This document shows positions 1-64,000 of a stretch of DNA of 64,000 bases, piece by piece (within the stretch, counting starts at the first letter, position 1; each line of letters starts with the position of its first letter). The translations under genes and the position numbers were made by a program. The notes under the pieces were generated by a model. It made no database searches. It was not told the origin of the DNA and saw only the letters and a program-made list of their open reading frames with translations. Where the stretch lies: NCBI GenBank assembly GCA_032358255.1, contig JAULBX010002667.1, positions 1-64,000 on the forward strand, written 5' to 3'. This DNA is from Heterotrichella gracilis (taxonomy: Eukaryota; Sar; Xanthophyceae; Tribonematales; Xanthonemataceae).

Positions 1-77
1 GCCACAGCCACAGCCACAGCCACAGCCACAGCCACAGCCACAGCCACAGCCACAGCCACAGCCACAGCCACAGCCAC
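1..77. repeat. (GCCACA)n hexanucleotide microsatellite
   Basis: About twelve uninterrupted copies of a six-base unit open the window, ending just before CTAG at 77-80. Each unit contains CAG, so the tract offers many AG acceptors. It lies directly upstream of the first recognisable exon (from about 81) and is most simply the end of an intron. It could instead be coding (Ala-Thr, Pro-Gln or His-Ser dipeptides, depending on frame). The left end is cut by the window edge, so its true length is unknown. Confidence 0.9.
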
Positions 78-80
78 TAG

Positions 81-3000
81 CAGCACAGCAGTAACGCCCA
101 AGCTGATCAACCCCCAGGAGTGCTTCACTCAGTACCTGCTGGTTGCGCCTTGGCAGACGCTGACTGGGCATGGTGTGTGCGCCAGGGGATGTCGGCATTC
201 CGCTCCTATTATTTCTCCCCTGGCACCCCATGTGGGCCACCGCAGGAGGCCGCGTGTAGAAAGGCAGAGCGCAAGCTGAGGCGCCAGGTAGGGTTTACGG
301 TTCAGGGTTTTAGGTTGAAGGTCCAGGGTTTAGGGTTTAGGGCTCGTGGTATAAGGGCCACAGCAGGAACACGGAGGCGGAACTGAGGTGCCAGGTAGGG
401 TTCAGGTTTTAGGGTTTTGGGGTTTAGGGGCCACCAGCAGGAGGTGATTGCAGAAGGCCGGTACGGGAGAATATTATATAATATCCCATTGCTCACAGGG
501 GTCTGACATTCAGCGCACTGGGGGTGTCATAAATATCGTGGTGTTATTGGAAACCTCCTGACAGTGTCTCATTATGCCCTCCCCCTTGTTCTCAGGCCAA
601 GGGGCAGCAGAGGTCAAATCAGGCAGTGGCTGCGGCGCCACACCCCTTTGAACCACCGGTGGGTGCCCCTTTGTATCGGTGATTCTTCTGGAAAATGATG
701 GGTATTTGCATGTGCACCACACCCGGGGAATTCGCCAGTGAGTGCCCCCTACTATTGGTGAATTCAAGGGGAGATAGCGGGCGGGAACAGGGAATGAGCC
801 GCAGTGGACAAAACCAGTGCTTTTATGCAGTTGGGGACTAGCGCAGTGTGGGGATCGGGAATTCAGGAAATGTACGGATCGGAAAATCGTCGCCTGTTTG
901 GCCAGCGCACGTCTGTCTAGGCCGGCTAAGGAAGAAGAAGCAAGAAGAAGAAAGAAAGAAAGGGAACGCACAGAGGCGTAGTTAGGGGGCCACTGGCTCG
1001 CACCAGGGCACCACACCAGCCAGAACGGCTGGCCAGGGTTAGGCCTGAGGCCTCTTTTACATTAGCCAATGCCAGCAGGCATTGCGTGCACGAGGGTTTG
1101 GCGGAGGAAGGAGAATGGGAACGCACAAAGTCGGATTTGGGGGCAAGTGGCAAAACATTTATACATTATTTTCTAATTACTATTATTACTACTATTTTTG
1201 TTGGAATTTCATATTGTTGACTATTTATTATAATTTATTATTATTCACTATTACCCCGCAGGTGCACACCCCCAGCAGGCGCTTCCCAGGGGTGCAGACC
1301 ATCATCAACCAGACAGCAGCGGCATTCAAACAGGAGGGGGAGAGTGGCCAGGCTGCCCGAGATCGCATCGTGCAGTACTTAGCCAAACACCTGCTGGGCA
1401 CGGTGCGTGCAGGGTTTAGGGTTTAGGGTTTAGCCATCAACTGCTTGGCCAAACACCTGCTGGGCAGGGTGCGTGCAGGGTTTAGGGTGAGGGTGTAAGG
1501 GCTAGGGCTTAGGTGTAGCCATCCAGTATTTGGTTAAACACCAGTGTGCGTGGAAGTTCTGGGTGTAGGGTTTGGCGTAAGGGTTTAGGGCTTTCTGGCT
1601 AGGGTTTAGGGTTTGTAGCCATCAAATACTTGGCCAAACCGGTGGTTGGTTGGGTCACAGCTGGCAACAATTCTGTAAACAATAAATACTTAAAGCGTCA
1701 GGCAAAAAATTCTCTATTTTTTCTCCGGGGACCAGCACAATCTGAACCCCAAGTATAGGTTGGTTATTCCCCCTGAATTGTGGATACACCCCTTGGAACC
1801 AACCCATTGTCCCACCACCTTTTGGCGCACAATACTGCCCGCTCAGCGCGTCTGATACCCCCCTTGTACCCCCCCCCCTCTCACCTTGATCCCTCCCCTT
1901 TTGGCCGCAGGACCCCGCCAGTTTTGACCTGCAGCACGCCTTCGCCTCCCAGCTGGTTTCCTCCCCTGTACTGTGGATGCAACCCCTGCAACTGGTCCAG
2001 AATCAACTGAACGCCACTCAGGCCATTGCCCTAGCGGGCAGTGGGATTGCAACCACTGTGGTGTGGGTGCTGCACAACTCGCACCAAGGAGGTGCGGGTT
2101 TAGGGGTTAGGGTTTAGGAACTAGGGTTTGCAAAAAAACAAAGCATGTGCCTCCGGCAGTGGGAGCATTTTTGCCGTGGTGTGGTTGCAGCACAACTCGC
2201 ACCAAGGAGGTGCGCCCTTAGGTTTTAGGTGTAGGGACTAGGGTTTGCAAAAATCCTAAACATGTGCAGTGGGATTCCCCATTGGGCAGTGGGATCACAA
2301 CTCGCACCAAGGAGGTGCGCCTTAGAGGCCGCTCTAAACGTTTTGGGGTTTAGGGTGCTGGGTGAGGGATTAGGGTTGAAAACTGTATTTGCCACACTGC
2401 GTGTGTGGATGTCAAGGCGTACGCTGCTGCCCCAGATGTTTAGGATTCCAGGAAACTCCAGGCTTTAGGGTTCAGGATTTACATTTGAGGGTTGATAACG
2501 TACCCTTAAGTACAGCACGTGTCCCACTGCAGACTTGGATTTCCCGGCATACGCAGCTTCGTTCGCAAGCATTCTCAGCTTCTCACCCCACCCCGGCGCC
2601 CTTAAGCCCCTCTGGGAAAACGGCGGCATTAAAACCCTGGCCGCCATATTCCACGAGGGCTGCACTTTTGTGGGAGGCGAAATCGTGGCAGGGCAGTTTG
2701 ATGCTGCTGCGGACGAGATGATCCTGGGTTGGACCAAGATGTTTCAAAAGGTGGCGCGCTTGCTGGATGCATGCACCACCATAGGTGAGCCAGGACCCTA
2801 GGGTTTCGGAATGCAAGCCAGGGCTGCAAACCGTAGTGTTTTGCATACAAATTTGAGCGTTTTTTGGGGTTGTCAACTGCTTTGGAGGAGCAGATCCTGG
2901 GGTGGACCAATATGTTTTGCACGGTGGCGCGTTCAATTCACATGCCCGAAACCCTTGCAGCATGAAAATGTACCCTTACTTTTTGGGCCATTTGCAACTG

Positions 3001-6000
3001 CGATAATCCGTTACGGCAAAGACATGTCATTATGTGTCTTTGCAGGCGATTGGAATGGTATGCAGTGGGAGGATAACGAGTGGGCGCAAAGGCCAGAAGA
3101 CAGGGGCTTGCTCAAGATGTATGTGAACAAGGCAGTCAGGGAGGATACGCACTGCAGGAGGGTGTGCAGGTGGGGACTAGGGTTTAGGGTTTTAGGGTTT
3201 TAGAGTTTAGGGCTGCTTCAACCTGATTGTTAAGCAGGCAGTCAGCGCGGGCACGCACTGCAGGAGGTATTAGATGGGGGTTAGGGTTTATAGACGAGGG
3301 TTTAGGGACTAGGGTTAGGGCAGCTTTAGCCCGAAAGTGAAGAGAGCAGTCGAGGAGGACTCGCACTGCAAGAGGGTTTGCAAATGAGGGTTAGGGTCTA
3401 GGGACTAGGGTTTGGGGTTTGGGTTTTGGGCATTTTTGTCCACCCTTACAGATCCTGTTAGGGTTTTCCTCACTGCGCCACCGACCATGCACACCCTTTT
3501 CAAACCTTGCGAGACTGCACCACATGCATCACAGGAGAGGCTTGTTTGCGCATGGAAGGGGCTTAATCCACCCTTCATGATGGCAACTTGAAAATCTAGA
3601 CCCTAGCGCGGTGCCCCTTCTGGACCCTAGTGTGACGGCTCCACAAACCCTAGACCCTAGCTGTGCCCCCCACACTGCAGGTTTTTCATGCAGCAGGGGG
3701 TGTACGCCACATGCGTGCGCTACATCATGTGGATGACCGCCCCCGGCAACCCCCTCACCGCCCGCCTGGCAGTCCTCCCCCTACCCTCCGCCAGGTGGCG
3801 GGAGCCCCCCATCGCCCCCATACTGGGCATGCTGCGCCGCCTGGCCATACTGCTCCCCGAGGAGGCACGGGGCCTGTTTGACACCTACCCACATTTTCTT
3901 ACATGCATCCTGCGCCTGCGCACTTTTGCGGGGAGCCACCCCGGCATCTACGCCAGTGCGGATGGCTTTTTGTCGGAGGTGGTGGGGGTTGGTGTGGTCC
4001 CCAGCTGGTTGCTGATGCAGCACCCGGATGCAATCAAGTTCATGATGCGCCCAGGTGGCGAGGGCCAGGGGGAGCAACAGGCTGGCGCAAGGTACCGCAC
4101 GTCCACTTGTAAAGCAGTGGAAACAAATATGTTATGTGGGATTTCTGCACATTTTGTAAATGTATGAGGATGCAATCAATTTTTAATGTGCCCGGGCGGC
4201 GGAGGACAGGGGGAGCAACAGGCTGGCGCAAGGTACCGTACATCGACTTTCTACTTATTCTGGAGGCATACCCAGACATGCTAACCTGGCTTCGAAGCTG
4301 GAAAGCAGATACTTACTTACTTACTTACCTATTCTGGATCTGTTGTATGTCTGGCAAGATGGATAGCACCCGCAACATCTACCCAAACTTACAAACTAGG
4401 TGTAGATAATAAAAAGAACAAAAAAACGTCCTTACTTACACATACCGATACAGCCAGAGTATCAGTGGACACTGTGATGGCAGGTATGGATCACAATCCC
4501 CCTCCTCGCAGGTTGAGTGCAATGCAGACCATCGCCGCAGTGGCCAACAGCGGTGCCCAGCACTATGTGTGCGGGGTGGACTCGCTGGTGGCGTTTGCAG
4601 GCCATGCGCTGGAAAATGACATCATCCCCTGGCTCATCCGCCAAATGCTCGTCACCCTGGGAGGTGAGCGGCGGCGGCTGGGGATGGGGATGGTAGAGCT
4701 GGGATCATGTTTTAATTGCATTTTGTGGAGGTATTGTTGCATGAGATGGAAGGCTTGTGCTTTTCCTGTGAGCAATTACTTTGTTCATGGCCAATGGATG
4801 TCCAGCTAGCGCCATTGCCATTCCATGCGTCTAGGATCGAGACCCCAACACATCTAGAGTGGCATCTGCAGCAAAATGTACGTCAATGTCTTTGTCTATC
4901 ACACACATACACGCACACTCTCTCTCTCTGAGGGTTGCCAGCTGTCGCTTTCCCCACAGCCGCCAAAGGGAACACCAAGCCTCTCAGCCGTACCCTCCCT
5001 CACTCTGTGCCTGCCTAAACCCTAAACCCTAAACATGAAAGCAGTCTTGCTTAACCGATGCCCGCCTACTGTAGATGCGTGAATTATATCCTATTTTATT
5101 CCGCTACTATTCTATTCCACTGCAGATGCTGTGACTGCGCCGGAGTCCTCATATGGCGAGATAGTGCTGATGACCCTCCTCCAGATGTACGAAGCAGGGC
5201 AAGTCGAGGAGGACGAGATGGAGGTGCGTGGAAACCCTAGGGCTAGGGTTTTAGGGTTTAGGGGATGTAATGGAGGTGGGTGGAAACCCTGACGCTAGGG
5301 TTTGAAGGGTTAAGGTCTTTAGATGTACGTTGAATGTGGCAGGTTCAAAGACTGTGAATCACCAGGCCCACTACATGGAGCTTGTGACCAAGCACAGGGA
5401 TTAGGATTTGGGATTAGGGTTTGGGGTTTAGGGTTTAGGGGTGGAGACAGGGAGACTCCTCTTGAATGCATTTTGTCTCCTCTTGGATGTAATCTTCCTC
5501 CCTTGAATGTAATTTTCCTCTCTTGAATGTAATGCCTCCCCTTGTTGCGCAGCGCCAGGTCAGCCTCCCCTTGTGCACCCTGCTGCACGACCTCCCCTCG
5601 GACGCAAAAATCTCCCATCAAATGCAATGTGTACCCCTTGCGTGAAATATTCCCCCCTTTGTATTGTGCAGCGCCGGGTCATCCTCCCCTTGTGCCTTCA
5701 GCTGCACGACCTCCCCTGTGATGCAACCCCCTCCCCTTGGCTCAGCCTGAGGTCCTGCCAGCTGTACACCCTGCGGGATGCGCTCATTGCCTGCGGGAGC
5801 GACATCTACCCGCAGCCGCCCTACCCACAAATCAAGGTACTACCTCCGATGCCAAATTCAGCACTGGCAGTACTGCGGTGTACATCTGCAGGTGATTGGT
5901 TGGTCAATCACATGCATTCCGGCTAAATAGCTGGTTTAGCAACCAGTCTTGCACATGCAGCGCCACGCAGTCCTGTGCTGATCATATCATCTATTGATCT

Positions 6001-9000
6001 TGCGCAACTTGGGGTCCTGCCAAAGTCAGGTGTGCAAATACACCAGTCATAAATCCCTCACTCGATCAGGACTGGTGACCCCCTTGATAAGTCCCTTCAC
6101 TTGACACTCCCTGCCCCTGATAAAGCCCCCTTTTGACTTTCTCTCAATCCTCCTTGTTACTGATGACACCCCCTTGACCCTTTCTCGTGTTGATCTTCCA
6201 ATTGAAACCCTAAGCCCTAAACCTTAAACCCTAAACCCTCCCCCGCTTTCCAGGCCCGCAACACCCCTTTCACCCGCATGCTGTACCGCTGCGCCTACCC
6301 CCATACCCTGGCCAAGATACCCTCCACCCACCCCTTCTACAGCGCTGGAGCAGCACTGCTGTGCCAGCTGTTGTGCTGGGCTGATGATGCGCTGTGCTTC
6401 AGGATGTACCACGATACAGATGTGGTGGAGGAGGTGTACAGGTGGGGAAGAACTCTGTTGGAAACCCTAGTGGGAACCCTAGTGAAAACCCTAGTGTGCG
6501 CCGGGCTGCAGCACAGCATGGACGTGGCAGAGGAGGTGTATAGGTCTGTACACCTCCTCGAAACCCTAGTGGAAACCCTAGTGGAAACCCTGGCGCAAAC
6601 CTTCAGGAATGGCCACATTCTGCGACCTGCTTGCTAGACACAACAAATGCAAGTATGTCTATCAAATGTAGAATATCCCGGTCTATGGCAAAAAAATTAA
6701 AATGTGAATTGCTGCCACATGCATTTGCCACTTTGGAGTTACACCCCTATTTGCTAGCGTACTGAGACTTGTTTCCGTTCTGATGCCCTCTCTGGTGTGG
6801 TCCCCAGGTCGGTGTTGGGAAGTCCAGCCAGCGAGTGGGGTGTGGTGGCTCAGCTGTGGGAGCAGCTGCGGTGCCTGTGCTGTAGGGCGCTGAAGATGAC
6901 GGAAGGTGCTGCATTTAGGGGTTAGGGGTAGGGTTCTTAGGGTGTAGGGTTTGCCGATAGGGTAACATAGTACAAGGTTTACAAGAAAATGTGGTTGACA
7001 GTCACATTGAGGGAGTAATGGGACAAGAATAGGTAGATGCACCGATCACTATCGTTTTGTGGGCAGACTAGGAACAAACCATAATCGCCATGCAGGGTCT
7101 CTAGACTAGGGGCCCATTTCCAATGATTGTGATCCGTGTCATTAGCCTAGAATAGTTGTCTTTCAAAATGAGGTTCAATATGGAATGACCATATGTGGAT
7201 AGCCCATGTATCAAGGGTTTAGGAAATGCTATTCATAATATGGATGACTTTTGGATAAGGGCCATAGGTGGGGTTGAGCATTATCCCTGTGGCATGCAGA
7301 CCAGGCCCAGGTGTGGCATATGTGCCTGTGAATTTGACTGTAACTGTAATCATGATTTGTAAATAATTATAATGCAATTGCTAGATTGGCATCCCTGTGG
7401 CATGCAGACCAGTCCAAGGCATGGCGCCTGTGCACCCTCATCGACCCCAGCCTCCCCCCCGACACCATCCAGTTTGATCGCTCCCTGGTCAAGTGCAGGG
7501 TGTCGCAGGAGCTGGCGTGGAAGGTGGGGTCAAGGGTTTAGGGTTGAAGATGTAGGGTATTGGTCTTATCGCACCCTGGGCAAGTGCAGGGTGTCGCAGG
7601 AGCTGGCGTGGAAGGTAGGGTCTAGGGTTCAGGTTGGTTGCCTTCCAGTTAGAAAACCAGTGTGCTACAGGAGTTGACGTAAAAGGTAGGGTATAGGGTT
7701 GAGGGTGTAGGGTGTAGGGTGTAGGGTTTAAGGTTTACCGGTCCCAGGTAAAGCGCAGGGTGCCGCAGAGCTGGCGTGGAAGGTAGGGCGCGGAGAAGGG
7801 AAAGGGGAGGTGACGCGCGAGATTAAGGGTTTAGGGTTTAGGGTTTAAAATTAAGGGTTCAGAGAGCACAGGCGCTAGCCAAGAGTGCTTTCAGAGCCCC
7901 AACCAGGTGTGCGGCGCATACATGTGTGGTTGGCCAACGTGCGGTACCGTGAGACACTTGTTTTCCAAAAACAGATGATAATGATTTCCCAGCTAGATGG
8001 AAATTTTGATGGTGACTGTTGTTAAATTCGTGATATTGAACTCACTGACGCGTCCTCTTGCATACCACAGCTTGACCCCCCTTCAACCCCCCACCCCTCC
8101 CCAGGCGCACCTGGTGCACCGCGCTCTCCCAGACATAGCCGCCAGCCAGGGCGCCCTCAATAGCAGAACAATCTTTACCTTATATGATGAAGCAACTGGA
8201 GCTGCGGTCCCCGCCACCCCAAGCCAGGTGACAGAAAAACCCTACACCCTAGAATGTGGAGCGTGGCAAACCCGAAGCCTGCCCAATGGTCGTGCGGTGT
8301 AACAGATCAGCCACTCTCTTTTGCTGATTCTCAGAGCTGTCTTGTTTCTTACAAACCCTAACTAGGGCCCCAGTGCTGCAGCTGGTAGAGATTGCGGATC
8401 GTCCCCAGAATGGGCCCGGCCCGGGTGGGGACTACATTGAAAAACTGAACGGGGATAATGGCGTAATGGTGGCGATGCACTGGGTAGGGTATGCCGCTGC
8501 GCCCCAAACCCTAAGGGTCTTGGCGGCCAAGCTGGAGGAGGTGATGGCCAGAGGGAGGACAGTGGAACAGGTGAGGGGGATGGGATTCGGGGTTAGGATT
8601 TAGAAAAACCTGCAGGGTTATGGCAGCCAAGCTGGAGGAGCTGGTGGCTAGTGGGAGGACATTGGATCAGGTGGGGCGTGTGGGATTACGGATAAGGGCG
8701 TTGGGAGAAACCTGCAGGCCGGGCAGCAACATGCACTGCAAGCTGCCAGATGCTTACCAGATGCGCACTCATGTCCATGGCTCGGAACAGACTCTGAAAC
8801 CTACAGCTAGGGTACAGGTTCAAGCACATGGGCCTCCATGCAACAGCGCGTGGTGTGCAGGCCAGGGAGGAGCTGGTGCTTCTCCTCCCCACACACAGCT
8901 CGATAGCGTCAGTCACCTTGCCGGAGGTGCTGGGTTCTTACCAGCTGCTGGCCGACAGGCACCCCCCCAATGAGCCTGTGTCTCGGGACCAGCACACGTT

Positions 9001-10099
9001 TGTGGAGCTGGTGAGGACAGCACGGGAGGATGGCCTGCCCGCTCCCAGGTAGGGTGTGTTTAGGGTTTTAGGGTTTAGGGTTGCTGAGGATGGCTCTGTG
9101 GAGTGGCCTGCTTGCTCCCAGGTAGGTTGGGCTTGGAATTGAGTAGGGTAGCATGTATATATGTAAGTACCGATGCCGCACATGTTTCAATATGATCCGA
9201 TGATCTATTAGACTGATGTATTTACTTGTCATTTGTGTGTTCACAGGCAGACAGGCGGGGGTGACATTGGGCTGCTGTACACCGCACCTGATGCTGCAAG
9301 GGGGGGCAGGGTGCACGTGAATTCATCGCTCCGATCGCCACACACTCGCCGGCTGTGAGCGTGGCAGCGGAAAGCAAAGGGGAGGAAACACTTGGAGACA
9401 GCAGTGTCCAAGGGGTTTCCAGTTCTGGTACTCGAACCCCTAGTATGGCAGGGGGTGGGGTGGGGGGTGAGGAGGGGTGGGTGGGGGCAGGTGGGAGTGT
9501 CAAGGGGAAGAAGAGGAGGGGCGGGTGCACCATGTGCGGCGCAGGGGCCGACGCTTCGGAAGCGGGCGTGTCGCTGCGCAAATGCAGGTAAGTACAGCAG
9601 GGGGTGGGGTGGGTGGGGATTGGGTGAGGTGACGCTGCTAGAGGGGCCGGTGGGGAGTGGGGGGAGTCACTAGTTGGGGAGCGGGGAGTCACCAGCAGCA
9701 ATGGGTGCAGAAGGAGGAGTGGGGTTATTGTCTACGCATTTATTGTTCATGATTGTTTACTGCAACATCCATTGCTAATATGAACACTCTGCTTTCAATC
9801 AAATCCATCGCCAAAATGGCAATGCTGTTTTTCCTATACAAAATCCATCGATATATACCATCTGGTAATGCTCCTCTTTCCATCAATTTTGCAGGTGCCA
9901 ACAAGAGGTGCGCTACTGTGGGAAGCGCTGCCAGGAGGTGCACTGGAAGAAGGTGCACCGGCGGGACTGCGACTTCAAGCGCAAGGGTGGGAGCGGGCAG
10001 GGGGGTGCAGCAGGGTCGGGGCAGGAGAGGGAGTCAGCAGCTGGTGGCGAGGTCGATGGTCGGCTTGCTGGGAAGCTGGGGGAACTGTCCGTTTCCTAG
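81..10099 (+). CDS. Large multi-exon protein with C-terminal MYND zinc finger (5' partial)
   Basis: At least 17 exons chain in one reading phase: about 81-287, 1262-1402, 1911-2091, 2533-2784, 3046-3161, 3694-4091, 4512-4663, 5126-5223, 5672-5836, 6254-6441, 6808-6905, 7408-7523, 8105-8227, 8382-8570, 8861-9048, 9247-about 9587 and 9895-10099. The last two build a MYND finger: CTMC, then KCRC, RYCGKRC and a final H-x3-C, ending in a Gly-rich tail and TAG. MYND fingers bind proline-rich peptides in partner proteins. The roughly 800 upstream residues are mostly helical-looking and match no family I recognise. The initiator lies left of the window. The exon at 3694 uses the AG at 3692-3693, because the earlier AG breaks phase. 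Within the exon from 9247, frame is lost between a G run at 9300-9306 and the finger, so an indel or unseen small intron lies there. Most introns carry copies of their own exon ends. Confidence 0.75.
1403..1640 (+). repeat. Tandem copies of an exon 3' end with splice donor
   Basis: The exon ending at 1402 closes with the bases coding AKHLLGT and the donor GTGCGTG. Near-copies of that junction recur downstream at about 1440-1475, 1525-1555 and 1620-1650, increasingly diverged. They are separated by TTTAGGG-rich spacers. Only the first copy is needed for the reading frame, so the others are intronic duplicates or alternative donors. Confidence 0.8.
2075..2325 (+). repeat. Triplicated exon 3' end (HNSHQG donor junction)
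   Basis: The sequence coding HNSHQG followed by GGTGCG occurs at the real exon end (to 2091), again at about 2190-2217, and again in shorter form near 2297-2321. Spacers hold TTTAGGG-like bases. All three copies keep a GT, so alternative donor use is possible. Confidence 0.8.
4311..4328. repeat. (CTTA)n tetranucleotide microsatellite
   Basis: About four copies of a CTTA unit sit in the intron between the exons ending at 4091 and starting at 4512 of the first MYND gene. It is a simple intronic microsatellite with no evident function. Confidence 0.7.
7490..7800 (+). repeat. Four copies of a KCRVSQELAWK donor junction
   Basis: The exon end coding KCRVSQELAWK (to 7523) is repeated with an identical coding portion at about 7580-7615, then in decayed form at about 7663-7690 and 7748-7786. 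Each is followed by a GT donor and most by a TTTAGGG/GTAGGG tract. The second copy is essentially unmutated, so it is either recent or functional. Confidence 0.85.
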
Positions 10100-12323
10100 G
10101 GCGTAGGGTGAAAGGTTTAGGGTTTAGAGTTTAAGGACCGGCGGGCACCCGAGACCAAATTGGTTATTGAGAGGGATGGGTGGGCGTAGGGACTTAAGAC
10201 TGCGTGCCGGCGGGTATACTTGCAGTCTAAATCTTTGATATATTAGTTCACCCCTGGTGCCTTTCCATGGGCCACTGTGACAAACAGTCCATGGTAGACC
10301 CTACGATTGGTTGTCAGTAGGATGGGCATTTCCACGTTGTCGTCAGTAGGATGAGCATTCTTGACAATGTGTAGTAGGAGCTGCAGCACAAGAGCGCTCT
10401 GACGTTTCCCTCCCCCCAGGGAGGCACTTTGACATCCCCCGTGGGCACGCACAGGGGGAGCAATCAATAGCCAATAATCAATGGGGTAGGAGGGCGTTTG
10501 AGCACGCATATGGACCTGTACTATGACCATGTATTTTCAGAGGGCAGACAGCAATTGTACCGAGGAATTTTGATGCACATGCTTGTCAAAAAAACAATTA
10601 ATCAAAGGTTTAGGGTGTAGGGTCAACTGTGGTTCCGTCTCTTTTGCATGCAGCGCTTCTTGATGGGCAACAGCTAGTGGGTCAAATACTTGTTAAATAG
10701 GCCGCTTCCTGAGTCAGACAGTATTTATCCTTTGCTAGATGTGCACATCCTTTGACAATAGGCATCTCAGAGGAGCGCATTTTGGAGGTGTGTACATAGG
10801 TATTTTATTGCATTGGATCCTTTTGTTGTAAATTACATCTAATGATTCAACTGCAAGTATGTACTGCCAGTGGCATGGCTTGGAAACATTGGGGTTACAA
10901 GGCTTGAAAGACTGCAAGGTTTATTCCTGTGCCAGTCAAAGCATGTCAGAAACTCAGACCATGCATGGGTGACTGTCCTGGATTCAACAAACCCTACGGT
11001 AGGGTAAACATTGCGTTACATTCATTCATTTCGGAAAGTCCAATGATCGACACTTAACCCGCCAGAAAGGCACAAAGTCTTGCTACCGTAGCGTTGGTAT
11101 ATATGATTGCCACATAGGACATGTTTTCTAAGGCACAGCGTCTTGTTCGCCATGCATTAGCGTGGTGTGTGCCTCCTTTGACAGGGGTTTCACGTTTCAA
11201 GACAACAGGCTTGGAGAAGGCGGCTCAGGTGTGCGTCGTATAAGGTTTTTCCATATGCATATCTCTTGAATGCGTGCTAGCTGTGCAGTGTGGCACATGT
11301 AGACATCATAATGACGAGCTATGAGACTCAGTATCCGGGGTTGTACTATCCAGGTCTTGTTTTTGTTGATACTATCTATTAGACTGAACTGCACAGTCCC
11401 AATGGCTTTGTGCTATGTTGCAGTGCACCACACCATGGTATTTCTAGGATCTGTTTATATATTTCGAATGTGCCTTCCACTCTTACTGTAACTTGGATCA
11501 CATACTGTGGAGCACAGTTGCATTGCCAATGAGGCTACTCAGTTGCAGCTTGCAGCTACTGTCACGGTGCTCGTGCTGAGGTATGACACTGCGTGACACC
11601 CTCAGCCGCACATTTCGGTCACCTAACTCTGTGTCCACTGCAGGCAACCTGAGGGGTCACTGAGCAGCAGCTCGACGCCTTTGTAAACTTTGTTCCAATT
11701 CTTCAACTGACCACAAACGCCAGTTGTGCAAGCACACCCCAGCCACACACCCAACATGTACTCCAGGACAGGCACAAGCTCCATGCAGACTGGCCAGGTC
11801 CCTTCCAACACCTGTGTGACTGGCACATCGGTTGAGGTCTTGGATGGAATTGAGTGTGGTTTGTCAAAGGCGTTAGAGGTGAGACTTATTACAGTCCCAA
11901 TCCTAAAACTTAGTTCTGAACCCTAATGTAGTTCCCTGCTGAGAGGGTGGACAGGATCACGTGCAGGATGCCGAAGATGGGGAGGCAAGACACCTTAGGC
12001 CCTGTTACTTTGACCCACATATCCCTGAACCCTATACCCTTATCCTGTGCTGAGGTGATGTTAGACCCGGTCCCAAGTGCAGGTACCAAGTGCAGGTGCC
12101 AAAGGCGCTCAAAATGAGACATCCTGAGCCCTGTAGCTTGATCTCAAACCCTTAACCATGGGCTCTAGGTGCACCAGGCTTGCGCTGCAACTCTGGCACT
12201 GATGTCTGTACATGCATGTTTACAGGATCCTTTGAACTGAGGAAGCTTTTCTGTCTGAGAAGAAATCTCCACTTGTGTATACAACGTACATGTACCAAAG
12301 CCCTCGCATCCCCTTGCATGCAG
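10100..12323. other. Region between the two MYND genes, no firm gene
   Basis: This 2.2 kb stretch has lower GC than its surroundings and short frames in all phases. A fragment at about 11650-11880 on the plus strand looks weakly coding and ends at a GTGAG donor, but it needs a frame change in the middle. It could be a 5' exon of the next gene. One telomere-like tract (about 10103-10130) sits just after the first gene's stop. I see no promoter motif, RNA gene or mobile element I can support. Confidence 0.4.
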
Positions 12324-22400: not shown

Positions 22401-25400
22401 ACCAGTAGGACGCGAATTTGGTTGAATATGGTGTGATTTATTAGGCAATTATTAGCACTAAGTGGATGCCAGTGGGCTCCTCATTCCCCTTGATGGTGGC
22501 TTGTCTGCATCATGTAAACCTGGCCTTGGTATATTATTAGCACTAACGGGATGCGACATACTGTTGATGGATATGCACTCCCAGCAACACATCCATATTA
22601 GCACCCACTGTGGTGTGAGTTGTCCTCATCCTGTGAGAATCAGTGAACGTGGAATACGACCCATTAGATATGAATTGATACCCTTCCTACCCTTGCTTCA
22701 TTTTCTCCCATCTCCCCTCACCTCCCCCCCCTCCTCCCCCCTCCCCTTGCTCCCCCAGCACATCCATCACCACCCGCAGGCAGTCCTCGCGCCAGGTGTC
22801 ATACCCTAGGGTTTGCAGCTGGTCACCGTACTCCCCCTCCTGCACAGGACATGACACCACCCCCTTGGTACAACGGATGGGTTTGGGGTTTAGACGTACA
22901 CATTCTGCGCGGTTTACTGCTTAGGGTTTACTCTTAGGGTTTTCACAAGGTCCTGCTAGTGCTGCCAACAGGGTACAGGTGTCCAGGTTAACCCTGTAGG
23001 GTTAAGTCTTTGTGGGCGTTTTTCCTGCCGCACCAGCCCTCCCATGAGGGTGCATGACAAGGGTTTAAACCCTTTAGGGTTTAGGTTGCTCGCCATTTTC
23101 AGCTTCAATTGTGCTGTCATAAGGATACAGGACAAGGGTTTAAGCCTTCAGGGTTTAGGGTTTAGTGTGCTCACCATATCCAGCTCCACCTGTGCAGCCA
23201 GGGCATCGTCAGGGGGGAGTAGGGTACTTGCATCCTGGTACCTGGGGAGGTCATCTGCAGGCACCTGCACCAGCATCACAGGTGGCATGTGAGTGGTCAG
23301 GCAATACCATTTTGTGCCCTACACACAAGGCCGCACACCCTTTTTCCTACACACAAGGCCGCACACACTGATTCCTTTTGAATGATCAATTGGACCAGCA
23401 GCCCATCCTACCCCATCCTATTGCATGCAATGACATTGGATCGACTCAGAATTTACGATCCAACTGTCCAGAGCACTGTGAACATTCTGCCCCCACCCGC
23501 CCCCACCTTCAACCCCCCATCCGCCACACACACACACACACACCTGTGACCGCATGGCAAGGAAGCGCTCCAAAAACAGCCCAGGAAAGTCATCTACATC
23601 AAGCTGTACCCCCTCCGAACCCATTTCCTCCCCATTCTCTTCACCCCCTGCACCCCTTTCCTCCCCTTGCTCCATTTCCTCCCCTTCCACTTCGCCACCT
23701 GCCCTTCTTTCCTCCCCTTGGTGCATCTCCTCCCCATCATTTTCCTGAATTGCACCCCTTTCCTCCCCTTGGGGCCTGTCGAGTTGCCCCCTTGCAGCTG
23801 CCTGCTGCTGGCTGAGGAGGTGGCTGGCTTGGCGCAGGGGCAGGGGCTGCAGGGGGTTTAAGAAGGGTTTTGAGTAGAGTTTTGGGGTCTTGTGTAGGGT
23901 TTTGAAGAGCACATGGGGTCGAAGATGCGGGGGGTTACCTAGCAAGCGAACTACTTATGTAATAAGCATGCACTGCAGCTAAAATAGTATGCCATGTCAT
24001 CAACCTATTTAGGATTTAGAGTTGTGTAGGGTATTTAGAGAATACCTCTGCCATTGCCTCCCTCCCCCATGGCCTTAGGGTTTCGGTTTCGGGTTTTGGG
24101 TTTTGTTGGGCTCTGCCATTGCCTCCCTCCTAAGATGGCCATTGGGGTTTGATTTGGGGTTACCCACCTCTGCCATGGCCTCCTTCCCCATGGGCGCCGC
24201 CAGCACCAGCCGCGCCCCCCTCCCCTGCACCACGGCCCCCCCACTCCTCCCCCCTCCCCTCCCCCCCCCAAGGTAGTTGAACCCCGGCCGCTTCCCCCGC
24301 TGCGCAAGGGGTGGGGGCGGAGGGTCCTCCCCTTTCTCCTTTTTGTAATACTCCACTTGCGCTGCCTTGATGAGCTTGTGTGCTGCTGGGCGGATGGTGT
24401 CCATGCTGACCGCCAGGGCCAGGATTTGGGGCCCAAATACGCGGTACTGGGGGGCCAAGGGGGAAAATACGTAAGTATGTGCCCCATGCTCCGGTCTCCT
24501 TACTTGATGATGCAGGCTCATTGGTAAATATTCCACCTAGTTTACTTCGTATCTCTCAAACAAATCATGTGCAATGCATGCAACCGTAACCAGGGTACTA
24601 TGACTATCCAAACAACTATGCTGATCTGATTGCTTTTAACTCCTATACTTTATCACCCTTGATTGCATGTCACCAAGGGGTGCAATGTGCCCCTACCAGG
24701 TGCGCCACCGCCCTCCGGAATGTCTCGGATTCCACCACATCGCAGCGCGCGGTGCCCCCCAGCAATGCGGCGCATCTGGGGTCTGATGCAGTCAGAAGGG
24801 TCATATACCTGGGGGCCAAAATCACACACAGGGTCACATACGATATTCCTGGAAAGGGTCATGTACGGAAAACCACGGGCCAAATACGATGGTAAACAAG
24901 ACCAAAAATCCAGTGTCCTTATGACTCTCGTCAACCCCAATTGGGCAATACGAGTAGACATCCGGACCAGATTTGGGCCTCATTTCTGGGCACCACAAAC
25001 CCTCAGCAAGGGTTTCTTTCCTGCCAAGCCTCCTCCCAACATCCCCCCAACACCCACTCTCACCCACCTCTGGCAAAGCGCCGCGGGCAGCATGCCTTGT
25101 GCTGAGTCAGCGCTCGCCAGGTCAGCACTGGGAAACTACCACCGCGCACCATCACGCGCTGCAGAGCCTCTTACAACGCAACCACACACCCATGCCGCCA
25201 ACCCCGCACACCACCCCATCTCCCCCACCCACCCACCTCTGGCAGAGCGCAGCAAAAGGAAGAGTGTCCTGTGCTGAGTCAGCGCTTGCCAGGTCAGCAC
25301 CGGGGAAGCATCACCACGCACCCCCAGGCGCTGCAGCACATGTGACCGCCTCCCCAGCATAGCCCTACACCCATGCCGCTACACCCACTATACTCCCACC

Positions 25401-49900: not shown

Positions 49901-51060
49901 TTCTCTACCCAGGTGGGTGGGTGTGCTGTGGGGTTATGGGTGTGGGCGGGGTGGGGTGGCATGCGCTTTCTTTGGTGGAAACCCCCGTACAGGCATTCAC
50001 AAGAGCAGTTGCATGGTTGCGCATCGTGCACTGCTAAATCCTCATGGGTTTCACCGTATCCTCCTGCCCTTTGGACCGGCCCCACTCCTCACAAGCACCC
50101 GCGCAGTGCTCCGCCACTGCGGTCTCACCTGTACCCCACCCCCCACCCACCCCATCACTCCACCTGCGCAGGCCCCCACCAATGCGCTGGTGATGTGGAC
50201 CGTGCCCCCCGATCTGCGCCCCTTTGCGGTGTCGGTGAATGTGATCGCCATACACGCGCTGGGTGATGTGCCCTCGCCCTCACTCCTGGGCTGGCTGCAG
50301 GACAACGTGTTCCACAACTGGAGGTGGGTGAGGGGGTGCACGGAGGCAAGGGAAAGCCTGAAAGCGTGGCGGCCTTGAAATGTGGAAATGTAGTGTGGAC
50401 AGAGTTTAAACAGAGTAAACCAACAGAAAATCACAGGGAATGTGGCGTACTTCAATTCATTTCATGAATGTGGCGTAAACCCTCCGTCCTGCGCTGGCTG
50501 CAGGACAGTGTTACTTTGCAGGGCTCTGCTGTGCTTTTGTGACTCTGCATGCGCACCATGGCGGTAGCCACCCTAAAACCCTAAACCCTCCCCTGCTGCT
50601 ACGGTGTTCCAGCCGCCCATGCCCCGCCCATCCACCTCCCTTTTGCGCAGGCTCGCCCTGACGGGCACGGTATTATTTTCTGTAATTTTATTTCTGATCT
50701 GCTGCAGGTTCACGATGACCGCGGCCACTCTGCTGCTGCTCCTTGCAGCGCTGTTCTACACCCTGGGTATCACTTAGTTTAGGGTAAAATGTTTGTGTGA
50801 TTTTATTTCTGGTTTGCTGCAGGTTCACGATGACCGCAGCCACCCTCCTGCTGCTCCTTGCAGCGCTGTTCTACAGCCTGGGCATCACGCAAGCGCACGC
50901 CACACCAGACTACCGGGGCATGGCGCGCCAGGCGAGCGATGTGGACGAGGAGGAAGGGGATGGAGAGGAGAGGAGTGTGGGCGAGGGGGAGCAGGAAGGG
51001 GGGGAACGGGAGGGGGCGCTGCTGGAGGGGCAGAAGCGGTCTGATGAGGGGTGGGGATAG
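46947..51060 (+). CDS. Spinster-like major facilitator superfamily transporter
   Basis: Ten exons in perfect phase: 46947-47139, 47301-47374, 47551-47604, 47871-48075, 48392-48604, 48844-48984, 49322-49438, 49728-49912, 50172-50323 and 50823-51060: 1572 bases, 523 aa. MFS carriers move small solutes across a membrane using an ion gradient. Hydrophobic segments include LLLLFCCMSLLVYIDRG (helix 1), a helix ending CRMVVGVGEASF (the GVGEAS motif typical of Spinster proteins), and TFFLCIPVGYALGYILGGV. Later helices are in exons 7-10. The C-terminus is a long Glu/Gly-rich tail. The family includes sphingolipid and lysolipid carriers in animals; the substrate here is unknown. A basic N-terminus of about 35 residues precedes helix 1, and a second in-frame ATG lies at 47043. 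An alternative last exon lies at 50707-50777. Confidence 0.88.
50707..50777 (+). other. Duplicate (alternative) last exon of the MFS gene
   Basis: This is a near-copy of the start of the true last exon (50823 onward), including the CTGCAG acceptor and the bases coding FTMTAATLLLLLAALFY. It codes TLGIT and then TAG. Splicing to it in the same phase would give a transporter lacking the whole acidic tail. It precedes the full exon by 116 bases, so transcription meets it first. Confidence 0.75.
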
Positions 51061-51663: not shown

Positions 51664-53851
51664 ATGAGCAGTAGTGACGATCTCAAGAAGGGGGCTTGGA
51701 CACCGGAGGAGGATGAGCTGCTGCGCAGGCTCATCACGATGTATGGTCCCCGCAATTGGTCAGTCATCGCCAATGGGATACCAGGGCGTTCCGGCAAGAG
51801 CTGCAGGCTGCGGTGGTGCAACCAGCTCAACCCAGACGTCAAGCGGGAGCCCTTCTCGGAGTGGGAGGACGCCGTGATCATCAAGGCCCACAAGGTGCAC
51901 GGCAACAAGTGGGCAGTGATAGCCAAGCTGCTGGTGGGGAGGACCGACAACGCGGTCAAAAACCACTGGAACTCCACCCTCAAGCGCAAGTACCAGTCCG
52001 GGGGCCTGGAGAACACGCACCTGAAGGAGAACAGGGACCTCCAGTGGCTTCTGGACAACCCAGAGCAGGGCCACCACGAGTACGACGGCTACAGCGGTGA
52101 CAGTGGCGAGGAGTACAGTCTTGACCAGGAGGACTCGATGGCCACCGGCGTGGATGCACGGCCGTCAAAGATCACGAGGAGGGGGGCTGACGGTGACGAT
52201 GTGAGCAGCAGCTTTGAGCTGTTGGGCCAGTCCCAGGGCAGCCAGCCCTACCTGGGGTCTCAGGCCATGTCCATCGATGACGATGCCATCCTCCCGGAGA
52301 TGGCGGACGACTTGGAGCTGGCAGCATCCCTGGAGCTTCTCAACTCGCTCCCAATGAGCGTGAGGGACGTTCTCCTGGAGGCTGCCAAGCTTGCTGGGTC
52401 ATCCAGGGCGCCACCGCCAGGGTCCAAGCCCTCCACACGCACCCAGCGGAACCTGTTTGCATCCAAGCCAGAGCCTCAAGAGGTAAGCAGTGTCTATCAA
52501 GTCACTTGCATGCATTCCAGCAGTATAGCCAGGTTGACAGTCAGTCTCACACAAGCACTGGCACCTTACCTCTGTCCTGGTATGCTTAAACCATCTCTGA
52601 CTGTGCTTTGCAACGAGGGCTATGGGGGGTGGCCCCAAAAACCCTTTGCTAATTATTGGATGTTTCCTTCTCAGTTGAAGGTGCTGGTGACAGACAGCAC
52701 GCAGATGTTCAGCAACGCAGGTGGCAACACAGCCACCATCTCCATGGACGTGCTGAATCACCTCATCTCCAAGAACGCAGCAGCGCAGCAGCAGCAGAGC
52801 ATCACCATCGTGCAGTCCCCCCAGAAGGCACACCCAGGTGGGAACTGCTTCACTTGTTTGGTTCACACTGACTGCTTCACCATGGTTGCCTATCTTGCCT
52901 CGGCTGTTGTGGCCCTTGACGTGTTTGCAAAACATCTTCTCTGGTCACAGTAACACTAGTTTGGGCTTGTGCTAGCTCAAACAGTGTTTGGCCACCTCTT
53001 CATTGGCTTCCCATTCCATAACCAGCACCCCATTCCTCTCCCCACAGGTGGCAAGCAGGGCGACGCAGAGGAGCCCCTGCCCTTTGTGTCCCCCTCCCCC
53101 GCCAAGGCCCACCTGCTCCACGCCAACCAGTCCCCAGGGACCATCTCCCGCCTGCTCAGCCTCACAAAGGGAGGCGGGCTCCAAGACCTGGAGCGAGCCC
53201 TGCTCATGGGGACCCTGCACCAGTCCCGCCCCGACAACGGCCTCATCAAGACCTGCGTGGCGCCGGACAGGGAGTTTGCTGACATGGCGCACACCTTCCT
53301 GGGGCCCGGGCACCTGCAAACCGGCTTCAAGAGCCCCTACCCGGTGTCCCTGGTGGGCCCCTCGCCCTCGCAGTTCCTGGTCACAGCAGGTAGGGCAACA
53401 CCACCCGCTCAAAACCCTACACCCGAAACCCTACGCTGGTTTAGCCCCGTTACAGGCGTGGCGATGTGGTCAAACGCAAGACCCTAAACGCTGCACCCTA
53501 AACCCTGAGCCCTGTTGCTGCGCTTGCAGTGAGGTCTGTGGCGCACACCAAGACCCAAAGCAAAAACCCTAAACCCTGAGGACTGTTGCTGCCCCTGCAG
53601 TGCGGCCTGTGGCGGATACAAAGAGCCCGCTGCCGCCCCTGTCTGAGGACTGGACTGCCATGCTGGAACGGCTGACCCAGGATGCCGATGGGAGGGAGGC
53701 GCTGGAGGCGGGCGCCGAGCTGGAGGGGGATGGGGACAAGGGGGGGGGCATATTCAAGGGGCTGGAGGCGGAATTTGGCTTCTCCCCCGATGCCGCACCC
53801 AGGGTGTCTGGTGCGGCGGGGTGCAGCGCAGCAGATATGGCGACTGACTGA
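51664..53851 (+). CDS. R2R3-MYB transcription factor
   Basis: Four exons in consistent phase: 51664-52482, 52675-52837, 53048-53389 and 53601-53851: 1575 bases, 524 aa. R2 spans about residues 9-57, with Trp at 12, 32 and 51. R3 follows to about 108, with Phe 64 replacing the first Trp, as usual, and Trp at 83 and 102. The [15 protein letters not shown] and [18 protein letters not shown] stretches match plant subgroup 22 (MYB44/70/73/77) best. The protein should bind DNA in the nucleus and regulate transcription; targets are unknown. The remainder is Ser/Gln/Gly-rich with acidic patches and no second domain. The ATG at 51664 directly precedes the MYB repeats. The whole DNA-binding domain sits in one exon, whereas land-plant MYBs are often interrupted. 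A decoy copy of the exon 4 acceptor lies at 53523-53555. Confidence 0.95.
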
Positions 53852-55978: not shown

Positions 55979-56037
55979 CCAGGAGGGGCAGCCTTGTTGC
56001 CCAAAACCCCAAAAGCTTGACCCTTTCTTTGCTCTGA

Positions 56038-61728: not shown

Positions 61729-63433
61729 CTAAACCCCAACAGCCAGCATTGCCTCCAGGCTGCCACGGGCTGCTGCGGGTGGCAGGGTTGAAGCGTGTAG
61801 TGTCATGGGCATGCAGTGCACCCCCAGGTCTGCAGTGAGCAGCCGGCACACCCCCTCCTGGTCGGATGTACTCCTGCGCACATGAGAACAAAACATTGAT
61901 TCCGAATCACAGTGCATTTGCGGACGGGCGGGTGATGAAATTACTGAATCCTGCAATGGCGTTTACAAGCAAGGCAGGGTGATAAAGCCCCAATCAGGGC
62001 AGGGCGCGTGGTGCAAACCCCCTCCAAACCCCACCCTTGGTATATGCAGCTCCCCTCAGTGAGCGGACGACTGTGGGATCAGTCCGGATCAGAGCTGCAA
62101 CATACCATCAGTGTGTATATATACCAATAGCCTCCTTTCCCGCACCTGCACAGCAGCTGGGCAGTCCCATCCCCTTGCGACCCCACCCCCTTCCCGCCGT
62201 AAATCCTCCCCTGGATGGGCCCATACCCCAAAACCCTGTGTAGGGCAGGCGCCGTCAGCTGTTGGGGGCACGAGGGGCCTGCCAGTGCATCAAATTGGGC
62301 TTGGGCCTCACACATTAAGGCCCCCACTGCCGCTGCATCTCCGGCGCTGAGGGCCACAATGGCTCTGCTGGTGATGTCTGTGTTGACAGACCCTAATAGG
62401 GTGTGAAGGCCTTGGTGGGTGGGGGTGGAGGGGTGCGGGAAGCCCGCCTGTGGGAAGGAGGGGGACATAGGGGTCAGCAACGAGTGGTAGCGGTGGGTAG
62501 CGGTGGTAGAGCGGGTGGTGTAGGCTTGACAACCCCTTATGAGTTCTGGCCTCGGTATTTTTAGCGGCATGCGTACAGCTGCCACTAAACAACTACCCAA
62601 GCACCAAGATGTGGGTCTGGAGGAGTGAAATGACACCAACATACCTGCATGGCGCCTAGTATGGCCACGGTATCCTTGCCCTCCAGAAGATCCACCAGCA
62701 CAAAGTACAGCGGTGCCCCCAACATGACCGGAACCACATGCAGCACGTCGCCATCGTAGGTCATGAGCACGGGAGTGTTGCCAAAAGCACAGGCCTGGTC
62801 CATGCGCCCGCACTGGGAGGGTGTCAGCCTCTCCCCCTCGTACGCGTGCTGCATTTCCCCCCTTACAGTCAGCTTCAGGTCGTAGGCGCGGTTGAAAGCG
62901 CGCGCCACCTGCGAGATGGGTTGATGTGCTGGTTGGAAACACCGTGGGTAAGGGTTTTCGTGCAGTGCGGGAACCTTGGGTGAGGGTTTTGGTGGTGTCG
63001 GGGGCGTGAGCCTCTACCCATTGAACGCATGCTACATCTCTTACAGTCAGCTTCAGGCTCTAGGCGAGATTGAAGGTGCGCACCTTCTGCAGGGTGTGGG
63101 GATGCGGTATGGGAACCCTGGGTAAGGTTTTTTGTGCTCGGCATCAGGCCGCACTGGGTAAGGGTTTCCATGCTTCCGGGTGGAAATATCCTTTGTGGGG
63201 TGTTCCGGGATGGTGTAGGGATCCAAGTCCTCTGAGTTCAGTACCACACACTGCAGCCAATTTTAGGGTTTTTGGTAGGGTTCCCACCCTACCAGCACAC
63301 ACACAGCCGCCGATGACGACAGCCCCTTCTTCAGAGGCAGCGTTGTCTTGTAGTTGCTGATCTCCATGCCGCCTATATGATGCTCTGTGCACAGCTTGTA
63401 CAGCACACCCGCCACGTAGGACCAGAACCCACC
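61729..63433 (-). CDS. GHMP-family sugar kinase (galactokinase-like), C-terminal part
   Basis: Four in-phase exons, 63293-63433, 62645-62908, 62146-62447 and 61729-61873, give the last 283 residues; the 5' part lies beyond the window. The ATP-binding motif GLSSSAAVCVL ends the first exon shown. The next reads VARAFNRAYDLKLT ... CGRMDQACAFG, with the family's catalytic-region residues. Motif 3, GGKGVGSQGDGTAQL, is in the third exon. GHMP kinases phosphorylate galactose, uronic acids, arabinose, mevalonate or homoserine. The motif pattern (GSQGDG and the GRMDQ segment) points to a sugar-1-kinase, but the substrate cannot be fixed. The C-terminus has no further domain. Introns upstream hold decayed copies of two exon edges (about 63010-63100 and 63535-63600). 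A short stretch near 63190-63255 could be an extra exon but is not needed. Confidence 0.8.
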
Positions 63434-64000
63434 CTGCACGCGCGCAAGAAGGTGAAACCCTCGGCAGGGTTTTTGGACATGATAGCTGTGAGTCCTGTGC
63501 ATGGGGATTCTAACGGCACATAAGATCAGAAGCTGCCCTGCACAGGCGCAAGGTTGGTGACCCCTGCGAGAGGGTATTTGGACATGGTGGCTGTGAGCCC
63601 TGTGCTGGGTATTTCAATGGGGTGCAGACTCGTGTGGACCCAGTGCAAGGGTTGATGAAGGTGACCAAGCTGTGCAACATTGGACCAGGACCCTGCACGC
63701 GACAGCAAAATGTTGGCGCCAGTAGGTCAACCCTGTGCAAGGGTTTTCAACAGGCGCATGCGCATCGAGGTGCTTGGAGCGGGAGCACTAAATGAAATTG
63801 ATTGGTTGATGCGTCCACGAGGTGTATGCATGGCGCGGGAACAACCCATCAGTACCGCCACGCCCACCCATCCACCCTTGACACCACCTATACCCACATC
63901 TGTACCCCACCTGCGCACCCAGCACTGTGGAATCCAGTGACAAGCACTGTGGCCCACCTCGCCCACGCCCACCCTAAACCCATCACCCCAACGACCCCCA
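63434..64000. other. Intron of the GHMP kinase gene running off the window
   Basis: No upstream exon could be joined with confidence. A candidate minus-strand exon end with donor lies near 63910-63950. A copy of the sequence around the 63433 acceptor lies at about 63535-63600. Confidence 0.45.

What the first reader, a model, noticed from the sequence alone, without database searches (positions are those of the whole stretch)
1..64000. Genome-wide pattern: splice junctions copied into their own introns with telomere-like spacers
In at least eight of the genes here, 25-60 bases spanning an exon edge (most often exon end plus 5' splice site, less often acceptor plus exon start) recur 1-4 times in the adjoining intron. 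Copies decay with distance. Spacers are rich in TTTAGGG or CCCTAAA. Ordinary microsatellite growth does not explain why copies are centred on splice sites. Possible mechanisms are repair of breaks near splice sites by local templated synthesis plus telomerase addition, or a process that creates intron sequence by repeating the junction. If copies are usable, each gene carries a reservoir of alternative donors. I know of introner elements and interstitial telomeric repeats, but not of this combination.
Basis: partly seen in the sequence, partly recalled or inferred. Interest (0 to 1): 0.9.

Follow-up and report, generated by a model that had tools for sequence, protein, structure and literature searches.

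The report
Telomere-repeat insertions duplicate their target DNA
In the genes of this green alga, short scraps of chromosome-end (telomere) sequence sit inside introns between two copies of the DNA they landed in, as if breaks were patched with telomere repeats while the broken ends were copied; when the break lies beside an exon, a decaying copy of the exon edge is left in the intron.

Summary
In 23 of 83 modelled introns a 30-nt exon edge recurs in the adjoining intron (p<=0.005 each); exon middles do so in 1 of 139 tests. Much of the "centring on splice sites" is survivorship: duplications inside exons are purged. Copies diverge like neutral debris, so they are not a maintained reserve of donors. 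The telomeric spacers are not incidental. Starting from arrays instead of splice sites, flanking DNA is duplicated across 32 of 82 intronic arrays (13.8% at matched array-free places). The duplication mostly abuts the array, and the array is mostly missing at the outer ends: target–array–target. The same test on 200 kb of unselected stretches of this genome repeated it: 43 of 137 arrays per flank against 5.5-6.6%. Forty-two clean events have target copies of median 45.5 nt. Best reading: short interstitial telomeric insertions made while repairing staggered breaks, known in mammals, where target duplication is the minority outcome. Whether telomerase did it is unproven. Introns mostly pre-date the insertions; one intron, 37064-37374, is a candidate for birth by this route.

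The parts
34095..34309 (+). Cleanest case in the window (gene E): target copy 1 (exon end, donor, first ~25-30 nt of intron), telomeric C-strand array 34173-34231, target copy 2; the intron after copy 2 continues without the array
   Evidence: same period 137 on both flanks, homologous intron starts, no array at either outer end
37294..37405 (-). Gene F (BTA1, homology-checked gene): array 37336-37363 between two ~42-nt copies of an exon end
   Evidence: no array at the outer ends
37064..37374 (-). Candidate for an intron born by this route: its inner copy aligns across the JOINED exons for 73 nt (34 before, 39 after the junction), and the intron start resembles the start of the next exon
   Evidence: best of 83 exon heads; shuffle p 0.015 and 0.017; no relative's genome to check absence of the intron
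26374..26542 (-). Gene D: array 26441-26475 between ~67-nt copies of exon end plus donor; the copies differ mainly at third codon positions
   Evidence: a further telomere-like stretch follows the copy's donor
50677..50888 (+). Gene H acceptor-side duplication (90% identical); 9-nt telomere-like filler 50774-50782 at the junction, not seen on either parental side
   Evidence: duplication; junction read by eye
38563..38666 (-). Gene F acceptor-side: array-like insert 38605-38624 between ~42-nt copies
9014..9126 (+). Gene A: array 9054-9086 between ~40-nt copies of exon end plus donor
5216..5295 (+). Gene A: array 5244-5267 between ~28-nt copies spanning the donor; a telomere-like stretch below the detection threshold follows the outer copy
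1372..1660 (+). Gene A: four successive copies of an exon end with telomere-like arrays at the three junctions, none seen after the last copy
   Evidence: (by eye)
2012..2334 (+). Gene A: three copies of exon end plus donor; here the array is repeated with the unit (later re-duplication)
3104..3437 (+). Gene A: three copies of exon end plus intron start with arrays after each copy
7461..7847 (+). Gene A: exon end plus donor with three further copies and arrays
24042..24134 (-). Gene C: array 24070-24106 between ~28-nt copies
53511..53627 (+). Gene I acceptor-side: array 53557-53581 between ~46-nt copies; an array also precedes the upstream copy
25016..25528 (-). Gene D: exon end plus donor in three copies WITHOUT telomeric arrays (counter-example)
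4026..4249 (+). Gene A: exon end plus donor duplicated WITHOUT telomeric array (counter-example)

Best explanation
Double-strand breaks with staggered ends (roughly 20-90 nt apart) are repaired by copying the overhangs and joining them around a short stretch of telomeric repeat. The result is target–(TTTAGGG)n–target. Inside exons this damages the protein and is lost. Inside introns, or across an exon edge when the outermost splice site keeps working, it is tolerated. The inner copy of the exon edge then decays neutrally in the intron. Shown: the target–array–target anatomy, abutment, absence of the array at most outer ends, neutral decay, and repetition on other contigs. Inferred: staggered breaks, the time order, and that telomerase (or captured telomeric DNA) supplied the repeats. 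Some units, chiefly in gene A, were later re-duplicated together with their array, and some duplications carry no array.
For: Array-first test, blind to splice sites: right flank re-found upstream for 22 of 78 intronic arrays vs 10.6% at position-matched array-free places (p=1.4e-5); left flank re-found downstream 26 of 78 vs 9.1% (p=2.5e-9); either flank 32 of 82 vs 13.8%. Of 21 window arrays with both flanks duplicated, 17 give the same period within 12 nt. Array cover is 0.93 at the junction, 0.18 after the outer left copy (n=26) and 0.13 before the outer right copy (n=22), background 0.08. Outside gene A, 16 of 16 outer downstream and 11 of 14 outer upstream ends have none. Seen from exon-edge copies: array cover in the 30 nt before the junction is 0.40 vs 0.10 in other introns at the same position and 0.14 in the same intron, 0 of 2000 permutations each, n=19. 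Replication on 200 kb of unselected stretches with the same thresholds: 43 of 137 on each flank vs 5.5% and 6.6% random (p=3.5e-21, 3.2e-18) and 7.7% at low-complexity stretches; 25 of 31 same period; no array at 31 of 43 and 30 of 43 outer ends. 42 clean events, target copies of median 45.5 nt (quartiles 36-59), insert median 35 nt, lengths uncorrelated (r=0.02). Neutral decay: differences at codon positions 1:2:3 = 37:32:73 (donor side) and 23:17:36 (acceptor side), near the 1:1:2 expected if only the exon is constrained. Precedent: mammalian ITSs inserted at breaks, target duplication in 6 of 130 rodent and 4 of 25 primate loci (PMC2246262, passages); direct duplications ascribed to staggered breaks (PMC7215372, passages).
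Against: About 3 in 10 outer ends in the sample are not free of telomere-like sequence; in gene A 6 of 10 outer downstream ends carry it. These fit re-duplication of a unit that already held an array, but also the array-first rival. 'No array' depends on a threshold: at least one outer end scored as free (5244-5267) is followed by a weaker telomere-like stretch. Several strong duplications have no array (for example 4026/4168, 25016/25197, 14004/14138), so telomeric filler is not required. In-register microhomology does not favour the end that telomerase would have to prime: 7 of 11 informative primed ends vs 12 of 14 other ends have at least one nucleotide. None of the 12 intergenic arrays shows a flanking duplication. 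Non-telomeric low-complexity intron stretches in the window also show some flanking duplication (32 of 161). The window is richer than the rest of the genome. Controls in the 200-kb sample are not intron-matched, which inflates the contrast there. On the acceptor side the junction effect is weak (n=9, 34 and 43 of 2000 permutations; array within 12 nt of the junction in 3 of 9, not significant).
Confidence: 0.68

Rival explanations
1. Arrays came first. Short telomeric arrays near intron ends stall replication or break, and the repair slips back and re-copies ~100 nt, so the array ends up in a tandemly repeated unit.
For: Gene A units in which the array recurs after each copy (2012-2334, 3104-3437). 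Interstitial telomeric repeats are known to stall forks and to be unstable (PMC6410037, passages). Arrays are enriched near donors even in 50 introns without copies (215 bases vs 96 +- 27).
Against: Predicts the array after the last copy as well; it is absent at 16 of 16 outer downstream ends outside gene A and 31 of 43 in the sample. Target length and insert length are uncorrelated.
Confidence: 0.2
2. Two unrelated things: ordinary tandem duplications that survive only in introns and across exon edges, plus telomere-like motifs kept near intron ends because G or C triplets help splicing.
For: Survivorship explains most of the exon-edge centring. Arrays cluster in the first 50 nt of introns in both orientations, and in the last 100 nt almost only as CCCTAAA (412 antisense vs 25 sense bases), where TTTAG would make a false acceptor.
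Against: Does not explain why arrays sit at the junction between copies or why this recurs in stretches chosen without regard to splice sites.
Confidence: 0.1
3. Telomeric DNA fragments, not telomerase, are captured into breaks, or microhomology-guided end joining templates the filler. (A variant of the best explanation, differing in the source of the repeats.)
For: Some inserts include non-telomeric DNA; in-register microhomology is present at both ends.
Against: No source locus was sought; nothing here separates it from telomerase.
Confidence: 0.3
4. Assembly artefact.
For: Short near-tandem copies can be mis-assembled (general knowledge).
Against: Clean copies are typically 78-97% identical (5th-95th percentile) and diverge in a codon-dependent way; the pattern recurs on other contigs.
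Confidence: 0.02

Closest known systems
Short interstitial telomeric sequences (s-ITSs) inserted at double-strand breaks, described in rodents, primates and horse (PMC2246262, PMC7215372; passages seen)
   Same: Short telomeric arrays at internal sites; break-site modifications including direct duplication of the target; absent from coding exons
   Different: [quoted passage not shown] Flanking duplication at about a third of arrays here, against 6 of 130 rodent and 4 of 25 primate loci. Strongly intronic in the window (82 of 98 arrays), whereas human ITSs are in introns about as expected by chance (31%)
Tandem genomic duplication crossing an intron-exon boundary (potato RdRp gene, PMC4974935; passages seen) and the AGGT duplication model of intron gain (PMC3443670, passages)
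   Same: A local direct duplication spans a splice site and leaves exon-derived sequence in an intron
   Different: There a new intron arose and no telomeric filler is described in the passages seen; here existing introns mostly grow, telomeric filler lies at the junction, and only one intron looks newly born
Introner elements (recalled, not compared by sequence)
   Same: Insertions with target duplications linked to introns
   Different: The inserts are telomeric repeats; no common element carrying splice sites was noticed, though none was systematically sought

Membership tests
Short ITS inserted during break repair | Short array of the telomeric repeat at a non-terminal site | tested here: met
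   98 arrays in the window, 155 in 200 kb elsewhere; exact (TTTAGGG)3 at 834 places in the 68.5-Mb genome, reversed control 0. That this alga's own telomere is TTTAGGG is not shown; it prevails in Chlorophyta (PMC7046594, passage)
Short ITS inserted during break repair | Target modified at the break, including direct duplication | tested here: met
Short ITS inserted during break repair | Empty ancestral allele in a relative | not testable with these tools
   states that this genome has no relatives here; the second target copy without an array is only a stand-in
Short ITS inserted during break repair | Nucleotides in register with the repeat at the primed 3' end | tested here: inconclusive
   present at both ends, not higher at the primed end
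Short ITS inserted during break repair | Telomerase-RNA sequence co-inserted (seen in some rodent loci) | not tested
   The telomerase RNA of this alga was not identified
Intron gain by tandem duplication (AGGT model) | Donor region resembles acceptor region, or copies of joined exons lie in the intron | tested here: inconclusive
   Exon tail vs own intron tail 0 of 83. Intron head vs next exon head 3 of 83 (p=0.0006), of which gene F intron 37064-37374 also holds a copy of the joined exons and gene J's model is doubtful. Copies crossing the joined exons: 6 of 83 vs 4.4% control, no overall excess
Introner elements | Related elements spread into many introns, supplying splice sites | not tested
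   No search with known introners or for a shared element was made
Alternative donors under selection | Copies conserved as coding sequence | tested here: not met
   pattern as expected for unconstrained copies; splice use was not tested

The most novel reading that the evidence does not exclude
In this alga, patching of staggered breaks with telomeric repeats plus duplication of 20-90 nt of target is a leading mutation that makes introns grow, and now and then makes a new one when the target is uninterrupted coding DNA (candidate: intron 37064-37374 of BTA1). The retained exon edges are dated fossils of the exon, so the history of break repair can be read from single genomes.
Probability: 0.35. 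Interest if true: 0.85.

Novelty: new variant of a known kind. Interest (0 to 1): 0.64.

Why it matters
Telomeric insertion at breaks is known from a few hundred loci per mammalian genome, where target duplication is the minority outcome. A genome in which it is frequent, recent enough to show both target copies, and embedded in genes would let one measure overhang lengths, the role of telomerase in break repair, and how introns lengthen or arise. It also makes testable the question, raised by the authors of PMC7215372, of whether telomeric repeats in introns affect splicing.

Tried and rejected
Intron birth by junction duplication as the general route: disfavoured; one candidate kept. Copies as maintained alternative donors: rejected on codon-position pattern. 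Fork-slippage of pre-existing arrays as the main route: disfavoured by missing outer arrays, kept as a rival. Telomerase priming by in-register nucleotides: inconclusive. Low-complexity DNA in general as junction: in the window such stretches show flanking duplication in 32 of 161 (either flank) vs 32 of 82 for arrays (p=0.0013), so part of the background is general. First gene-finder run over-fragmented exons and was discarded. Protein search with gene A: none of the 8000 scored candidates reached E<=0.001. Rfam and tRNA scans empty. Paper searches; I saw titles and the beginnings of abstracts, for only part of the papers found (15 of 16, 12 of 36, 15 of 61). None of what was listed reports telomeric arrays with target duplications in algal introns.

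Limits: window tests were designed after looking at the window; thresholds were then kept for the 200-kb sample. Gene models lack RNA evidence. The cluster counts include one acceptor-side cluster (63410-63620) assigned by eye and leave out one weak intron cluster (957-1151). In the 42 clean events, 13 come from loci chosen because they hold exact (TTTAGGG)3, so they inform anatomy, not frequency; 104 alignments were found and 62 were dropped because an end lay more than 10 nt from the array.
Full report
WHAT IT IS FROM. The window is C29:1-64000 of a 68.5-Mb, 903-contig genome. It reads as green-algal nuclear DNA: gene F is a betaine lipid synthase whose exons match green-algal proteins, and a tree places it beside Parachlorella, Micractinium, Picochlorum and Auxenochlorella with moderate support, 84/97. 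The species was not identified.

CHECKING THE OBSERVATION. A self-trained gene model gave 12 genes and, after curation, 83 introns. The last 30 nt of an exon recurs in the downstream intron in 17 of 83 cases at p<=0.005; the first 30 nt recurs in the upstream intron in 8 of 83; exon middles do so in 0 of 68 and 1 of 71; edges against the wrong intron in 1 of 80 and 0 of 78. This affects 23 introns in 10 genes. A masked blastn self-comparison finds 23 clusters of local duplication (none in three shuffles): 11 reach across a donor, 6 across an acceptor (one of these, 63410-63620, assigned by eye because the model misses that exon), 5 lie inside introns (one weak, left out of the tests, leaving 22), 1 is intergenic.

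WHY SPLICE SITES. Duplications inside an exon change the protein and are lost, so exon-internal windows are the wrong null. If units fall at random and only harmless places survive, 34% of viable clusters should span a splice site; 17 of 22 do (p=4e-5; within genes 46% expected, 17 of 21, p=0.0012). If intron-only and intergenic pairs fade twice as fast, because both copies are free to change, the expectation is 51% (p=0.010; within genes 63%, p=0.066). Mid-intron windows recur in 9 of 68, other intron windows in 3 of 59 to 12 of 67, exon tails in 17 of 72. So survivorship explains most of the centring; a modest true excess remains possible.

THE COPIES ARE DEBRIS. Differences between exon and copy fall at codon positions 1:2:3 as 37:32:73 on the donor side and 23:17:36 on the acceptor side. 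A constrained exon and an unconstrained copy predict about 1:1:2. That argues against both a selected reserve of donors and an assembly artefact.

THE TELOMERIC LINK. The telomeric heptamer class is at least eight times commoner than any same-composition class, and exact TTTAGGG is absent from exons. Arrays gather in the first 50 nt of introns in both orientations (622 bases against 236 +- 48 after rotation; in 50 introns without copies 215 against 96 +- 27) and near acceptors almost only as CCCTAAA (412 against 25 bases in the last 100 nt), where the other orientation would add a false AG. For 19 donor-side copies, the 30 nt before the junction are 40% telomeric, against 10% at the same place in other introns and 14% in the same intron (0 of 2000 permutations each). 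On the acceptor side the effect is weak (n=9; 0.18 against 0.05 and 0.09; 34 and 43 of 2000).

ARRAY-FIRST TEST. To avoid selecting on splice sites, I took every array and asked whether its flank is duplicated across it. Of 82 intronic arrays 32 are (13.8% at matched places). Outside gene A it is 20 of 55 against 11.2%, in gene A 12 of 27 against 22.1%. The duplication mostly begins and ends within a few nucleotides of the array; where both flanks are duplicated the period agrees in 17 of 21. The array is at the junction but mostly not at the outer ends. In intron 34148-34398 about 30 nt of intron start are shared by both copies; after the first copy comes about 50 nt of array and then the exon copy, while after the second copy the intron simply continues. 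In gene H the junction carries a 9-nt telomere-like filler that I see on neither parental side (by eye).

REPLICATION. Twenty stretches of 10 kb, chosen by round coordinates on other contigs, hold 155 arrays. Of 137 testable, 43 have the right flank duplicated upstream (random 5.5%, low-complexity 73 of 943) and 43 the left flank downstream (random 6.6%, low-complexity 72 of 930). Both flanks are duplicated in 31, with the same period in 25; 31 of 43 and 30 of 43 outer ends are free of arrays. These controls are not intron-matched. A stricter alignment over window, sample and 30 seed loci kept 42 of 104 events; target copies have median 45.5 nt, quartiles 36 to 59, and inserts median 35 nt, uncorrelated. 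Among the youngest, L021 at 1497 (35-nt target, 97% identical) shows three telomeric units between two target copies and none just outside.

DO INTRONS ARISE THIS WAY? Mostly not. In 17 of 19 donor-side copies the sequence after the copy fits the intron start better than the next exon, and in 9 of 9 acceptor-side copies the sequence before it fits the intron end better than the previous exon; some margins are small and gene J is nearly a tie. Copies crossing the joined exons are not in excess overall (6 of 83 against 4.4%). The exception is intron 37064-37374 in the homology-checked BTA1 gene: a stretch in it aligns to the two exons joined, 34 nt before and 39 nt after the junction, and the intron start resembles the start of the next exon (p about 0.015 each, best of 83). 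That is what insertion into uninterrupted coding DNA would leave. Gene J's 129-nt intron looks similar, but its first exon model is doubtful.

MECHANISM. Target–array–target is what staggered-break repair gives if both overhangs are filled and joined around telomeric DNA. The stagger, the order of steps and the enzyme are inferred. In-register microhomology occurs at both ends and does not single out the end that telomerase would prime. Some gene A units were re-duplicated with their array. Some duplications carry no array.

KNOWN OR NEW. Insertion of telomeric repeats at breaks, sometimes with target duplication, is documented in mammals (PMC2246262: 6 of 130 rodent and 4 of 25 primate loci; PMC7215372: staggered breaks proposed). 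A duplication across an intron-exon boundary is documented in potato (PMC4974935). The combination at this density and inside genes did not appear in the listings of the ten paper searches named under Tried and rejected. I file it as a new variant of short interstitial telomeric insertion, with the empty-allele and telomerase criteria untested or open.

Noticed in passing
50708-50778: The inner copy of gene H's last exon keeps its acceptor and reads in frame to a TAG supplied by the telomere-like filler, so an alternative, shorter last exon is conceivable (by eye).
   Followed up: no
last 100 nt of introns: Telomere-like arrays near acceptors are almost only in the CCCTAAA orientation (412 vs 25 bases), which avoids a false AG; selection by splicing on insert orientation is a likely cause.
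   Followed up: partly
window, intergenic: None of 12 intergenic arrays has a flanking duplication against 32 of 82 intronic ones (p=0.007); unexplained.
   Followed up: no
1-10100: Gene A (MYND finger) holds 10 of the 23 affected introns and had no hit among the candidates scored in the protein search; it may be a hot spot or simply fast-evolving.
   Followed up: partly
L041 (G000:C11:60001-70000): A second hot spot: many arrays with target duplications and several re-duplicated units within 10 kb.
   Followed up: no
56143-56587: Gene J: a 225-nt-offset local repeat and an intron made largely of exon-like copies; its first exon may be mis-modelled.
   Followed up: partly
23621-23773: 51-bp tandem repeat, three copies, inside a gene C coding exon and a multiple of three long; the kind of exon-internal duplication that selection can tolerate.
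   Followed up: no
14004-14211: Three 67-bp tandem copies, 95% alike, in an intron of gene B without telomeric motif.
   Followed up: no
1-77: Perfect GCCACA hexamer repeat at the contig start.
   Followed up: no
window against genome: The window is richer than average: 12 loci of at least 4 units (<=3 mismatches) in 64 kb against 11 in 200 kb elsewhere, with 13 of 20 stretches having none.
   Followed up: partly
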